From assembly GCA_021737945.1 (NCBI GenBank), contig JAIPCX010000002.1:1-64000 (forward strand): a stretch of 64,000 bases of DNA. The letters are read 5' to 3'. Position 1 is the stretch's first letter, and each line of letters begins with the position of its first letter. Shown piece by piece: positions 45,106 to 61,002 of this stretch. This DNA is from Polynucleobacter sp. GTDB taxonomy: Bacteria > Pseudomonadota > Gammaproteobacteria > Burkholderiales > Burkholderiaceae_D. The position numbers and the translations under genes are program-made. The notes beneath the pieces were generated by a model. The model did not search any database. It was not told where the DNA came from and saw nothing but the letters and a program-made list of their open reading frames with translations.

Positions 45106-48100
45106 ATGAGCGTTTTTTCGGATTACACCGATGCACAGGTCGCAGCATTTGGCACGGCGCAAATTGCCGCGCTGTCGACCGCACAAATCGCCGCTTTGGG
45201 CACGGACCTGTCACGCCTGACGTCGTTGCAAACGGGGGCATTCAGCGCGACACAAATTCGCGCCATCGACGATCCTTCGCTGTTCACATCCAAGAATATT
45301 GTTGGCCTCTCGGCGAAACAGCTGGCCAGTTTGAGTACCACGCAGCTGGCTAAATTAGGCACCGTCCATATGGCCGTGCTAAGCGCGGATCAGCTGGCTG
45401 GTTTCTCGACCGCACAGATCAACAAATTGAGCACCCTACAACTGGGAGCAATCAAGGATGCCAACATCGTTGGTCTGACGCCGGCGCAAGTAGCCGCCAT
45501 TACGTCTGACCAAATCAGCGGACTGACAACATCTCAGCTCGCCAAGCTAACCGCCTCGCAAATCGCCGCCATAAGCACTTCGGCCCTGACTAATCTGTCA
45601 GCTGCAACACAAGTCCCGGCATTAAAATCCGATCAACTGGCGGCCTTGAAATTAGCTCAGCTCGCGGCGATGACCACCGATCAGGTTGCTGCGATTGGTA
45701 CCAGCGCAATCGTCGGGTTGACGAATACCCATATAGCCGCGTTAACGACAGGCACTACCGGCCAAGTTGCCGCACTCACGCCCACGCAAATCGCGAAGTT
45801 GGCCTCCGGCCAAATTGCCGCACTCACTGCTGCGCAAGTCAGTTCGATGACTACGGCTCAAGTAGCTGGTATTGAAGCAGCAGATTTGCCGGCCATGTCG
45901 GCCGCCGGCGTAGGGGCCTTATCAGCTACTCAGCTGACGGCGATGAAATCCCTGCTCAGCAAATTCAAGGCAGGTCAAATCCCTGGCCTGAAAGGGACTG
46001 AACTGGCCAAGCTTGATTCATCGCTATTCGCTGAACTCACCTCCGAACAACTAGCAGCACTGACACCGACTCAGCTAGCTAGGTTAACGTCGGACCAGCT
46101 CGCTGGCCTAAGTACCGGTGCAATTACTGGATTAACCGCCTCACAGATTGGTCAGCTAACCACCGATGCAACCGGCCAATTGCCTGGACTGACTGCGGCA
46201 CAAATCGCCAAGTTAACCGCTCCGCAGCTAGTCGGGCTAAAGGCTAACCAACTAGCCAAACTATCGACCGATCAAATCAAAGGTCTGGATCCAACTGTGT
46301 TGGGCAAACTGAGTAATGCCCAAGTCAGCGCCCTCACAGTCGATCAAGTCGGCGCACTTACTACCGCTCAGGTCGCTGGGATCAGCACATCGCAAATCAA
46401 AGCATTGTCTGGCGATCAATTACGGGCTTTCACAGCTGATCAACTTAAAGCCATACCACCTGCCAATCTAGCTTCGTTGACGAATTCACAGATCAAAGCA
46501 ATGTCTGAACTGAGTCCGGCTGAACTCAAGCAGTTAAGCGCTGATCAACTAAAAACCTATCTCGACAGTCACCCGATTAACGAAATCGATACCAACTCAA
46601 TCAATGGATTCACACCCGATCAATTGACGGGACTCTCCACCCTTCAAATTGGGAAACTCAGTAATCCACAAATAGCGGCAATTAGTACTGAGAGTCTGGC
46701 TGCTCTGGATGATCAAAACTTAACCGCTAATTTAAGCGCACCACAAGTTCAAGCTCTAACGACTCAGCAGATAGGCGCACTATCCCAAAATGCACTGCAA
46801 GGATTAGGGAGCAAAATTGCTGGACTAACTGCTACAGACTTTAATGCATTAAGCGGTGATCAGCTCGCACAACTATCGGAGACTCAGGTAGCCTCGTTAG
46901 CCGCACGTCAAATCGCTAGTCTGACTCAGGAAAAACTAGAAAAAATAGCGATCGACAAAATGGGTGCCATGCAGATTAGCGCCATGAATGCGACACAGAT
47001 AAAAAACTTATCCGCTGACGCGCTACAAAAAATTTCCGCCGCCGGCATACAAGGCTGGACACCCGCACAAATCAAATTACTCGATGCTACTCAGCTGGAA
47101 AAGCTATCAGCGAATCAAATTGGCGGCATACGCGCGACCAGTCTCTCGGGACTAACAACTGCTGCGATTGCTGAGCTAAATGCAACTCAGCTAGGTGGAC
47201 TAACCACCTTGCAAATACCCAAACTCAGTGCGGCTCAAATTCAAGCCATGGGTCTGGATGCCACTAATTTATCGGCTGACCAAATCGGCGCCATGAATCA
47301 GGCGCAAATTTCTGGATTAACTGCCGATCAATTAGGCGGCCTGAGTGCAATCAAGATTGCGGCGATCAAACCTGCTGCAATAGCCGGCTTATCAGCCGCT
47401 CGTATTGGCAGCCTGAGTACAGAACAGGTCGGCGGCATGACCGGAGACCAACTCTCAAAACTCAATAAAGCGCAGATCCAAGCCATGGACGCCATCGATA
47501 TCGCCAGCATATCGACTATCAGTGTCAGCGGCCTCGGCATGCAACAACTCGGCAATCTCACCGCAGTTCAGTTAGCTCAACTAACCACGGACCAAATTAC
47601 AGCCTTGCTTCCGGCGCAAATGTCATCCTTCAGCGCCGCGCAACTGAGCGCCATGTCAAATGATCAGATAGACACTATCTCAACCATTCAAATCAAAGGT
47701 ATCCGGGCTACGTCTATCCCCGGTCTGACCGAGAGTCAAATTACATCACTCGGCTTAGAAAAACTCGACGCCATGAACCAATCACAAGTTCAGGCGTTGA
47801 CGGCAAAACAACTCGCTGCCATACCCAAAGATGATTTGCAAAATTGGTCTGCCGATGCAGTTTCCTTACTGACGAAAAATCAACTCAAAGTGTTCAATGC
47901 GGACCAAATGGGTGTAATCAACTATCAGCAGCTCGATGCCCTTGCCTATGCCAGAAAGCTAGGATTACTAAGCGCTACACAAGTGGCAGCGATTGATCCC
48001 ACGACTATGGGTAGCGTAGATACATCGACGATTACAAAATTTTCAGCGGCACAAATAGGGGCGTTTGCGACAGCACAGGTGGCGGCGCTCGGAACAGCGC

Positions 48101-48966
48101 AATTGCAAGCAATTGATGCTACCGACATTCGCTCCATGTCTGCTGACCAGATTGCAGCATTATCGGCAACTCAAGCCGCTGCACTCACCACATCACAAAT
48201 CGCCAACCTAGGCACGCGACTGATACGCGCGCTGAGCGTAACTGCGCTTACAAATATGTCAGTGACTCAGATCGCTAGCCTGAGTGCCGGCCAAGTCTCG
48301 CAATTAACGATGGAACAGGCCGATGCACTCACCGATGACCAAGTGCTCGCCTTGGGAAGTAAAGCATCCAGCCTTTATCTCAGTCCGCTGGTGCTTGATA
48401 TGAATAACGATGGAAAATTTAGTGTGTCGGTGGACAATGGTGTGCGCTTTGATATGAAATCATCCGGATCGCTGCTTAAGACCGGATGGGTAAATGCTAA
48501 TGATGGCTTACTCGCTCGCGATATCAATGGTGATGGCATTATCAACAACGGCGCTGAGCTGTTTGGCGACAGCACCAAACTTCCGAACGGAAAATTAGCT
48601 GCGGATGGTTTCGCTGCTCTCTCACCGCTGGACGGCAATCGTGACGGCGTGATCAACGCGAAGGATACAAGTTGGAAGGATTTAAAGATTTGGATAGATC
48701 GCAATAGCGATGGTCATACGGATACAGGTGAATTAGCCTCCATAAACAGCACAGGTATTGTTTCTCTGAAGCTTGGTCCGAAATCATCAACCGCCACTGA
48801 AAATGGCAACAAGATTGGCTTAGTTAGCAGCTATACCAATGCCGATGGCAGTAGTGGGACTATGGCCGATGTTTGGTTCCGAACCAAAAGCGCCAACGCG
48901 CCCGAAGTAAAAACTATCGGTACGCTCGATGACGGTACGCATCCCGATATTTCAGCGGGCGGCTAA
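45106..48966 (+). CDS. Giant octapeptide-repeat protein with C-terminal calcium-binding module
   Basis: 1286 residues. From about residue 5 to 1085 the chain is almost entirely a repeat of period eight, consensus L-[S/T]-x-x-Q-[I/L/V]-x-[A/G/K], roughly 130 copies, with occasional 3-residue inserts (such as TTGTTGQ). The C-terminus (about 1090-1240) resembles the calcium-binding region of FrpC/RTX-type proteins: four D-x-N-x-D-G loops at Asp1098, Asp1139, Asp1176 and Asp1198, with LLARDINGDGIINNGAELFG. The nine-residue RTX repeat (GGxGxDxxx) and an N-terminal signal peptide are absent, so secretion, if any, would be by a C-terminal signal (type I), which is inferred. The S/T-x-x-Q spacing resembles a helix-capping box, suggesting a solenoid of short helices. 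Function unknown; a surface or extracellular adhesin is one possibility. Confidence 0.9.
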   Translation: MSVFSDYTDAQVAAFGTAQIAALSTAQIAALGTDLSRLTSLQTGAFSATQIRAIDDPSLFTSKNIVGLSAKQLASLSTTQLAKLGTVHMAVLSADQLAGFSTAQINKLSTLQLGAIKDANIVGLTPAQVAAITSDQISGLTTSQLAKLTASQIAAISTSALTNLSAATQVPALKSDQLAALKLAQLAAMTTDQVAAIGTSAIVGLTNTHIAALTTGTTGQVAALTPTQIAKLASGQIAALTAAQVSSMTTAQVAGIEAADLPAMSAAGVGALSATQLTAMKSLLSKFKAGQIPGLKGTELAKLDSSLFAELTSEQLAALTPTQLARLTSDQLAGLSTGAITGLTASQIGQLTTDATGQLPGLTAAQIAKLTAPQLVGLKANQLAKLSTDQIKGLDPTVLGKLSNAQVSALTVDQVGALTTAQVAGISTSQIKALSGDQLRAFTADQLKAIPPANLASLTNSQIKAMSELSPAELKQLSADQLKTYLDSHPINEIDTNSINGFTPDQLTGLSTLQIGKLSNPQIAAISTESLAALDDQNLTANLSAPQVQALTTQQIGALSQNALQGLGSKIAGLTATDFNALSGDQLAQLSETQVASLAARQIASLTQEKLEKIAIDKMGAMQISAMNATQIKNLSADALQKISAAGIQGWTPAQIKLLDATQLEKLSANQIGGIRATSLSGLTTAAIAELNATQLGGLTTLQIPKLSAAQIQAMGLDATNLSADQIGAMNQAQISGLTADQLGGLSAIKIAAIKPAAIAGLSAARIGSLSTEQVGGMTGDQLSKLNKAQIQAMDAIDIASISTISVSGLGMQQLGNLTAVQLAQLTTDQITALLPAQMSSFSAAQLSAMSNDQIDTISTIQIKGIRATSIPGLTESQITSLGLEKLDAMNQSQVQALTAKQLAAIPKDDLQNWSADAVSLLTKNQLKVFNADQMGVINYQQLDALAYARKLGLLSATQVAAIDPTTMGSVDTSTITKFSAAQIGAFATAQVAALGTAQLQAIDATDIRSMSADQIAALSATQAAALTTSQIANLGTRLIRALSVTALTNMSVTQIASLSAGQVSQLTMEQADALTDDQVLALGSKASSLYLSPLVLDMNNDGKFSVSVDNGVRFDMKSSGSLLKTGWVNANDGLLARDINGDGIINNGAELFGDSTKLPNGKLAADGFAALSPLDGNRDGVINAKDTSWKDLKIWIDRNSDGHTDTGELASINSTGIVSLKLGPKSSTATENGNKIGLVSSYTNADGSSGTMADVWFRTKSANAPEVKTIGTLDDGTHPDISAGG
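45121..48360 (+). repeat. Coding array of about 130 divergent 24-bp units
   Basis: The protein repeat of eight residues gives a 24-base period, but codons vary freely from unit to unit, so the array is conserved in protein and not as identical DNA. This argues for an old array kept by selection and not a recent slippage expansion. Confidence 0.85.
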
Positions 48967-58993: not shown

Positions 58994-59878
58994 TCAGTAA
59001 GGCAGGTAATGATCGATCAGCAAAGCAGCGAATAGCAAAGAAAGATAGATGATGGAATACGCAAAAGCTTTGCGCGCCAACAGATCATCATAGTGACGCC
59101 AGATTCGCCACGCGTACCACAGGAAAATCAATCCTAGTACAACAGCGCTGATCAGATACATCAGACCACTCATGCGAACCGCATAGGGTAGCAACGACGT
59201 AGCCACCAAAATGATCGTGTACAACCACACATGAAAACGCGTGAACTCCATGCCATGCGTGATCGGCAGCATAGGTAAACCAGATTTCGCGTAATCATCG
59301 CGACGATACAGCGCCAGCGCCCAAAAGTGCGGAGGGGTCCACACAAAAATAATCAATACCAATATCCACGCTTGCATCGTTACATCATTCGCAATAGCAG
59401 CCCAGCCTAAAGCGGGGGGCATCGCACCTGACAAGCCACCAATCACAATATTTTGTGGTGTCGCTGGTTTGAGAATGATGGTGTAGATGACTGCATAACC
59501 GACAAAGGTAGCGAATGTCAGCCACATTGTTAGCGGGTTAACCAAGTTATATAAAACCCACATGCCAGCGCCACCGATCACTCCTGAAAATGCGAGTGTC
59601 TGCAACACGGTTATTTCACCGCGTGCCATCGGCCGACGCGCAGTACGCGCCATGCGCGAATCAATTTCACGCTCAACCAAGCAATTAATGGCAAAGGCCG
59701 CACCAGCCAACAACCAAATACCCACCGTGGCCGCGATCAGTAAGCGCCAATCGGGTAATCCCGGAGTCGCTAAAAACATGCCAATCACGGCGCAAAAAAC
59801 CGCCAGTTGAGTAACCCGCGGCTTGGTCAGCGCCCAGTATTGAGCGATGCGATTTTGCTGGATGATCAGGGTGGTCAT
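58994..59878 (-). CDS. ctaB: Protoheme IX farnesyltransferase (heme O synthase)
   Basis: Farnesylates heme B to heme O. The 294-residue integral membrane prenyltransferase has the first Asp-rich site in [19 protein letters not shown] and a second in [17 protein letters not shown], with about nine hydrophobic segments. The open frame extends upstream to 59950 into ctaA, but [15 protein letters not shown] at 59878 begins the family domain. It follows ctaA, which completes heme A. Confidence 0.95.
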
Positions 59879-59888
59879 GGAAGGAAAC

Positions 59889-60998
59889 TTAGGCTGGAAA
59901 GGCGCTAACTGAATCAGACTCGTCGTTGGCGCTTTTCGTAGAAAAAACAATGAGATAGTTTAGCATGACGAGCAGGATTAACAGCGCTGCCGCACCCGCG
60001 TTATGCACCACAGCGAGCGCAAGTGGCCAATCCAACAAGACGGTTGATATACCGGTCGCTAGCTGAATCAAAATTGCCCAAGAAATTATTCTAGACACCG
60101 AACGCAGGCCCTCGATTTTGCGCGCTCTATGGCTCGTCCATGCAATCACGGCCACAACAATCACGGCGAAATTACGGTGCGCCCAATGAATCGCAACCAG
60201 CGCGCCAAACGGCAGATACTCACCCTCAGCCGTCATTCCGAGATGACGCCACAACGTAAAGCCTTGAGCCCAATCCATCTCGGGCATTAACGATCCCTGA
60301 CATAAAGGGAAACCCGCACACGCCAACGCTGAATAATTCGTGCTGACCCAACCACCTAAAGCGATTTGCATAAACAAAATAACTAAGGACACCAACGCTG
60401 GCCAGCGCATAGTCGCTGCATCACGATGAACCGACGGCAAAGGATTTTGTCGCATAGCGTGCCACGTCAATAGCGAAAGCAAAGACATACCCAATAAGAG
60501 ATGAATCGTCACAATCACCGGCTGCAGTTTTAGTGTGACTGTCCATGCGCCAAAGGCACCCTGAATACAAACAAATAGCAACAGCAGCGCGGGGAGGCGT
60601 GGCGAATAGCGACGATCGGTTAGTTGCCTTGATAAGCGTGATGCAATCAGCAGCGTTGCAATGATCAACACGCCCACACCCATCGCTAGGTAGCGATGGA
60701 TCATTTCTATCCACGCTTTAAAAACCGTTACGGGACCGGTGGGTTGCAAGGTTTGCGCCGCAGTGATTTCTTCGTGAGCTAAAAAGGGATTGGCTTCACC
60801 ATAGCAGCCCGGCCAATCTGGACAACCGAGTCCAGAATCAGTCAAACGAGTGAATGCACCAAAAACAATTAAATCAAACGTGAAAAAAACCATTACCCAT
60901 GCCAGCTTACGATAGCGATCACTGCCGCGCGACAAATACACCAAGGTCGCAGGCACCAAAGCCACGAACAAACCTTTAAGGGCTAAGGCTATCCACAT
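59889..60998 (-). CDS. ctaA: Heme A synthase (COX15/CtaA)
   Basis: Converts heme O to heme A for cytochrome oxidase. The 369-residue membrane protein has eight hydrophobic segments and the conserved features [44 protein letters not shown] (heme-ligating His) and [20 protein letters not shown]. The paired Cys residues in the loops are typical. It lies between the SCO-like gene and ctaB on one strand. Confidence 0.95.
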
Positions 60999-61002
60999 AG
61001 CA

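What the first reader, a model, noticed from the sequence alone, without database searches (positions are those of the whole stretch)
45106..48966. Giant protein of about 130 eight-residue repeats capped by a calcium-binding module
Nearly 1100 residues follow L-[S/T]-x-x-Q-[I/L/V]-x-[A/G/K] with period eight, and the C-terminus has four D-x-N-x-D-G loops as in FrpC-like proteins. RTX nonapeptides, a signal peptide and neighbouring secretion genes are all absent. The S/T-x-x-Q spacing repeats a helix-capping box in every unit, so the array may fold as a solenoid of very short helices, which is an unusual period. It stands alone after ugd. I have a vague memory of similar repeats in other proteobacterial calcium-binding proteins, so novelty is uncertain.
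Basis: partly seen in the sequence, partly recalled or inferred. Interest (0 to 1): 0.78.

Follow-up and report, generated by a model that had tools for sequence, protein, structure and literature searches.

The report
Octad-repeat protein with altered calcium cap
A bacterium encodes a long protein predicted to be a rod of about 130 tiny repeated helices, closed by a calcium-binding cap related to a known self-cutting module but lacking the residue that does the cutting; both parts belong to known families, and the altered cap is the new detail.

Summary
ORF 45106-48966 (+), 1286 aa, is an octad array (residues ~7-1085) plus a calcium module (1093-1258) with four D-x-N-x-D-G loops. The array is an existing family, Pfam PF20080 (E 1.2e-105), and PDB entry 9zem (HeliScrew4) has the same octad. 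The cap has the predicted fold and most key residues of the FrpC self-processing module (SPM), but Ser-Pro replaces the scissile Asp-Pro. Among 193 distinct SPM domains, all 79 directly behind an octad array have Ser or Thr before the Pro, never Asp; of 89 without one, 51 have Asp. The 79 are essentially one clade, so this is one event, yet Ser and Thr swapped at least 9 times with no third residue. The gene is under purifying selection, with orthologues in at least 5 of 20 congeners. Five longer paralogues exist; one lies in a type I secretion locus. Best reading: a secreted helical rod whose cap folds on calcium without cutting. Export of this short-tailed member is inferred, not shown.

The parts
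45106..48966 (+). Whole ORF, 1286 aa, 131 kDa, pI 4.95, no Cys
45124..48360 (+). Octad (ALTTAQ) array, residues ~7-1085, about 130 units
   Evidence: PF20080 E 1.2e-105, 34 stretches; period test; AlphaFold2 of residues 1-420, pLDDT 92.4
48382..48384 (+). Ser1093, in the place of FrpC Asp414, before Pro1094
   Evidence: alignment to 6sjw/6sjx, mapped by hand; letters checked
48382..48879 (+). SPM-like calcium module, residues 1093-1258
   Evidence: phmmer to 6sjw E 6.6e-36; Foldseek of the C-terminal model to 6sjw E 8.5e-14, TM 0.81 on target
48397..48414 (+). Calcium loop 1, D1098-G1103
48520..48558 (+). Calcium loop 2, D1139-E1151
48631..48666 (+). Calcium loop 3, D1176-D1187
48697..48732 (+). 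Calcium loop 4, D1198-E1209
48889..48963 (+). Tail of 25 aa after the module; the five paralogues have 107-155 aa here

Best explanation
The protein is a long rod: about 130 short helices stacked as an alpha-solenoid, ending in an SPM-fold cap. Inside the cell, where calcium is low, the cap stays unfolded. During type I secretion, which starts from the C-terminus (recalled knowledge), the cap leaves first, binds about four calcium ions and snaps shut; this holds the chain outside and gives the emerging helices an edge to stack on. Because Ser replaces the scissile Asp, the cap does not cut and link as in FrpC; it stays attached. The mature protein would act as a cell-surface or extracellular structural or adhesive rod. 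Shown here: the architecture, the predicted folds, the retained calcium ligands, the missing Asp, purifying selection, and a type I secretion locus beside a paralogue. Inferred: secretion of this member, calcium-driven folding, absence of cleavage, and the surface role.
For: Array family and fold: and PDB 9zem with the same octad. Cap; residues D1098, D1102, D1133, D1139, E1151, D1176, D1187, D1198, E1209 and the fifth-site pair D1155, D1255 are present (mapped by hand). No Asp: Ser1093; D414A in the FrpC SPM abolished both cleavage and conjugation (PMC7846742, passage). FrpC SPM binds calcium at about 150 uM, far above the bacterial cytosol (PMC7078468, discussion part 1). Ser/Thr-Pro in 79 of 79 array-fused SPMs with at least 9 and 14 Ser/Thr swaps on two trees. 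Selection: dN/dS 0.093 over 633 and over 682 codons against G010; within residues 1-420, same-position octads are 47-90% identical between orthologues against 26-28% for other positions. Export: no Cys and no signal peptide by reading; the L013 paralogue lies between two PrtD-type ABC genes + HlyD and an LssB-type ABC + HlyD + TolC-like gene; an LssB-type ABC also lies downstream, same strand, of the end of an array-SPM ORF in G007 and G011; type I homologues in the flank of 8 of 80 related loci, 5 of them with an ABC gene (no background control).
Against: No type I gene is seen next to the focal gene or in the short flanks of its orthologues. The focal protein and its orthologues lack the 107-155-aa tail of the paralogues, and no export signal was identified. 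In 19 genus genomes an LssB-type ABC over cut-off is in 5 of 9 with PF20080 and 1 of 10 without, suggestive only; the orthologue-bearing G010 (75% complete) and G016 have none over cut-off, and G019 was not in that sample. No promoter-like site was found upstream of the gene. Part of the FrpC port differs (L580-L582 map to V1256, W1257, F1258). AlphaFold2 can be overconfident on repeats (PMC11795689, abstract and passages).
Confidence: 0.6

Rival explanations
1. The short form is a cytoplasmic or periplasmic leftover of a secreted family: it lost its export tail and now serves another role, or none.
For: It lacks the 107-155-aa tail of all five paralogues and has no secretion genes beside it; the G016 orthologue is interrupted.
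Against: dN/dS 0.093 against G010; a tail of 15-27 aa is shared by all 6 orthologues, own included; calcium ligands are largely kept, though G016 has lost one Asp of loop 1; at least one other array-SPM protein has a tail as short (L119, 22 aa).
Confidence: 0.2
2. The cap still cleaves itself on calcium, by a hydroxyl-based reaction of Ser/Thr instead of the Asp anhydride.
For: Ser or Thr in 79 of 79 array-fused SPMs despite at least 9 swaps; the fifth-calcium pair is kept in the focal protein.
Against: The described chemistry needs the Asp side chain. The residue matching D478 is not conserved in the paralogues or in G019. A purely structural role of Ser/Thr-Pro explains the same pattern.
Confidence: 0.05
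3. The array is disordered in reality and the solenoid model is an AlphaFold2 artefact.
For: AlphaFold2 makes confident but unrealistic beta-solenoids from perfect random repeats (PMC11795689).
Against: The units here are diverged and each position is conserved on its own, the prediction is helical, and a protein with the same octad has a structure entry (9zem; coordinates not seen).
Confidence: 0.08
4. The protein is an ordinary RTX-type exoprotein.
For: FrpC-like module; the C15 paralogue has two RTX nonapeptide stretches, the best at residues 384-413.
Against: No RTX family match in the focal protein; the pattern GGxGxDxL is in 0 of 80 tails and 1 of 80 upstream parts of the closest loci.
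Confidence: 0.04

Closest known systems
Pfam PF20080, ALTTAQ repeat
   Same: The octad array scores 345 bits against a cut-off of 26.4.
   Different: The model covers 38 residues of repeat only, not the cap; Pfam's own text was not seen.
PDB 9zem, HeliScrew4
   Same: 120 aa of the same octad, E 9.7e-24 to the array profile.
   Different: About 14 units and no cap; whether it is designed or natural, and its paper, were not found.
FrpC self-processing module (PDB 6sjw, 6sjx)
   Same: 42% identity in the Foldseek alignment to 6sjw, same predicted fold, four calcium loops, aspartates matching D478 and D579.
   Different: Ser-Pro replaces Asp414-Pro415; octads lie before it; no RTX nonapeptides after it.
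Mesothelin / ARM-type solenoids
   Different: Units of 27-37 residues, not 8; a Z this low is common for repeat models, so kinship is not claimed.

Membership tests
ALTTAQ repeat (PF20080) | Score above the curated gathering cut-off | tested here: met
   345.3 bits against 26.4
FrpC-type self-processing module | SPM fold | tested here: met
   phmmer E 6.6e-36; Foldseek to 6sjw TM 0.81 on target; a predicted model
FrpC-type self-processing module | Four EF-hand-like calcium sites | tested here: met
   ligand residues present by alignment; binding itself not tested
FrpC-type self-processing module | Scissile Asp-Pro bond | tested here: not met
   Ser1093-Pro1094; Ser-Pro in all 6 orthologues, own included
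FrpC-type self-processing module | Calcium-dependent clip-and-link activity | not testable with these tools
   needs purified protein
RTX exoproteins | Glycine- and aspartate-rich nonapeptide repeats | tested here: not met
   PF00353 not among the 10 families at E<=10
Type I secretion substrates | C-terminal uncleaved secretion signal | not testable with these tools
   tail of 25 aa; no predictor at hand
Type I secretion substrates | Cognate ABC/HlyD/TolC genes nearby | tested here: inconclusive
   not seen beside the focal gene, present beside a paralogue
Mesothelin/ARM solenoids | Shared fold over most of the domain | tested here: inconclusive

The most novel reading that the evidence does not exclude
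The conserved Ser/Thr-Pro junction is not a dead site but a second chemistry in the SPM fold: calcium folding strains the junction and the hydroxyl group attacks a neighbouring carbonyl (an N-to-O acyl shift of the kind recalled for SEA domains), giving a self-cleaved or ester-linked cap on a whole class of secreted helical rods.
Probability: 0.04. Interest if true: 0.8.

Novelty: new variant of a known kind. Interest (0 to 1): 0.42.

Why it matters
In the papers I read, SPM modules are described for Asp-Pro cutting and linking, and are used as a protein-ligation tool. A clade in which the cutting residue is uniformly Ser or Thr, joined to an octad solenoid, suggests that the fold has another use, such as calcium-triggered folding during secretion. 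It offers a natural comparison for the cutting mechanism and a modular very-short-helix rod for design.

Tried and rejected
DNA-level tandem repeats: none listed. NCBIfam gave no match for the focal protein. Two other Pfam families pass their cut-offs for the whole protein, CAAP1 (E 2.1e-17, 63.8 bits against 25) and HTH_26 (25.9 bits against 22), but in both no stretch passes by itself, so I read them as summed repeat composition and rejected them; LRR_EndoS, Bflower_2, Dockerin and the rest of the 10 are below cut-off. LRR proteins in the PDB sequence searches were rejected as Leu periodicity. Viral structure rows have TM-scores up to 0.26 and were rejected. Importin, catenin and designed armadillo rows were taken as generic solenoid likeness. 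Repeated, correlated evolution of array and Ser/Thr was considered and dropped: the array label needs only 2 changes on the tree, and the independent-pairs test has no power.

All ten paper searches: HeliScrew, ALTTAQ and TAQIAAL gave 0 papers, and one octapeptide search 0; the others gave no title or abstract start on these proteins or on a Ser/Thr-Pro SPM in the rows listed, which are a part of what matched. The library holds open-licence PMC papers only, so absence from print is not shown. Term searches inside PMC12775518 ('screw' and others) and PMC7618865 ('ALTTAQ') gave 0. PMC12538545 (outline and one section) and PMC3034196 (passages) describe cutting SPMs only in what I saw.

Full report
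What is there. The ORF at 45106..48966 (+) encodes 1286 aa with an ATG start, preceded by a GGTGG stretch. Residues ~7-1085 are octads of the form L-[ST]-x-x-Q-[ILV]-x-[AGK]. Identity at offset 8 is 0.258 against 0.096 +/- 0.009 in 1000 shuffles, and 62 strict units compare with at most 7 in 1000 shuffles. The array is Pfam PF20080, ALTTAQ repeat, E 1.2e-105, 34 stretches; that family is found in 28 of 398 genomes of the phylum at E<=0.001, 25 over cut-off. Residues 1094-1258 match the FrpC self-processing module, 6sjw, E 6.6e-36. The protein has no cysteine and a pI of 4.95. The neighbours called ugd and ychF here are named by recall; no profile was run on them.

The cap lacks its blade. Mapping by hand on the alignment, with letters checked, the calcium-site residues of FrpC map to D1098, N1100, D1102, D1133, D1139, E1151, D1176, D1187, D1198 and E1209. 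The fifth-site pair D478/D579 maps to D1155/D1255. Of the port residues, W451 and G491 map to W1128 and G1168, while L580-L582 map to V, W and F. The scissile Asp414 maps to Ser1093. In FrpC the Asp414 side chain attacks its own carbonyl to form an anhydride (PMC7078468: results part 1 of 3, discussion part 1 of 2, and passages), and D414A abolished cleavage and conjugation (PMC7846742, passages). So FrpC-type cutting is not expected here; this is inference from residues, not a test.

How general is that. At the reported match all 80 have Ser or Thr before the Pro (75 called by script, 5 read by eye). Counting every SPM domain in those loci there are 90: 49 Thr, 40 Ser and 1 Asp, the last in L099, a multi-module ORF without an array. 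A profile search of 398 genomes of the phylum found SPM matches in 88. I took its 30 loci plus 60 further listed places. Of 91 domains there with the N-terminus covered, 62 have Asp before a Pro, 28 another residue before a Pro, and one no Pro. Loci from earlier calls gave 33 more: 13 Thr, 11 Ser, 5 Asp, 4 other. From 219 domain hits in all, 15 without a Pro at the site or not spanning the module were dropped; 204 were left, 193 of them distinct. With an octad array directly upstream: 43 Thr, 36 Ser, 0 Asp (n=79). Without: 51 Asp, 33 Ser/Thr, 5 other (n=89). 25 had too little upstream sequence to class. Against a stronger claim: on a quick tree the array label needs 2 changes, so this is essentially one lineage, and the sample was partly drawn by likeness to the focal domain. 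Still, within the 79, Ser and Thr swapped at least 9 times on the all-domain tree and 14 on the array-only tree, while no third residue appeared (rows without the Pro had been dropped beforehand, so the Pro's constancy is not a finding there). The site looks kept for a reason rather than decayed.

Relatives and selection. All have Ser-Pro and a tail of 15-27 aa. The ychF-like gene follows directly in 4 of the 6, own included; G019 and G016 have other neighbours. Against G010, dN/dS by my own counting script is 0.093 for both parts; against G007 it is 0.138 for the C-terminal part, and elsewhere synonymous sites are saturated. Within residues 1-420, octads at the same position are 47-90% identical between orthologues, against 26-28% for other positions. 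The array is therefore an ordered, individually conserved series and not a homogenising repeat.

The rest of the genome. Five paralogues of 2464-3138 aa carry octads and an SPM-type cap with Ser-Pro (one) or Thr-Pro (four), followed by 107-155 aa where the focal protein has 25. One, L013:5932-15348, lies between a pair of PrtD-type ABC genes with HlyD and an LssB-type ABC with HlyD and a TolC-like gene; the first ABC and the TolC-like gene are cut by the locus ends, and the TolC part is below its cut-off, while the whole first ABC passes. A second LssB-like ABC on contig C43 is below cut-off. An LssB-type ABC also lies downstream, on the same strand, of the end of an array-SPM ORF in G007 (contig C108) and G011 (C248). 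Over 19 genus genomes, LssB-type ABC passes its cut-off in 5 of 9 with PF20080 and 1 of 10 without. PrtD-type passes in 15 of 19 and is not informative. Of the 80 related loci, 8 show type I homologues within the fetched flank, 5 of them an ABC gene; I ran no background control.

Mechanism. I think the cap is a calcium-triggered plug and edge for the helical rod during C-terminus-first type I export, without the cut. The architecture, the conservation and the secretion linkage of some family members are shown; export of this member, folding on calcium and the surface role are inferred. The weakest point is the short tail and the lack of a recognised export signal.

Verdict. The two parts are known kinds. 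The systematic Ser/Thr-Pro cap behind octad solenoids was not seen in print in my limited searches, and makes this a new variant of a known kind.

Noticed in passing
L013:30-20000 (G000:C2): A type I secretion locus with two PrtD-type ABC genes, two HlyD genes, an LssB-type ABC gene and a TolC-like gene around a 3138-aa octad-SPM protein.
   Followed up: partly
L011:8212-16203 and L012:3704-12991: Two paralogues share nearly the same N-terminus and C-terminal cap and tail, suggesting a recent duplication; L012's copy has RTX nonapeptide matches and a second ORF with a related-looking N-terminus beside it.
   Followed up: no
G069:C1:441272-441757 (L142): An SPM match with Asp-Pro lies in an open frame of 19352 aa.
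   Followed up: no
L099: One ORF carries several SPM-type modules in series, four with Ser/Thr-Pro and one with Asp-Pro.
   Followed up: no
L016 and L039 (G016:C200): The focal orthologue is interrupted between its two halves; sequencing error or pseudogene not resolved.
   Followed up: no
Caulobacter vibrioides control genome: PF20080 passes its cut-off in this well-studied genome, the only one of 14 controls.
   Followed up: no
window 59001-61000: AT skew of 0.254 and 0.265, high for this window (as at 15-16 kb, 0.261).
   Followed up: no
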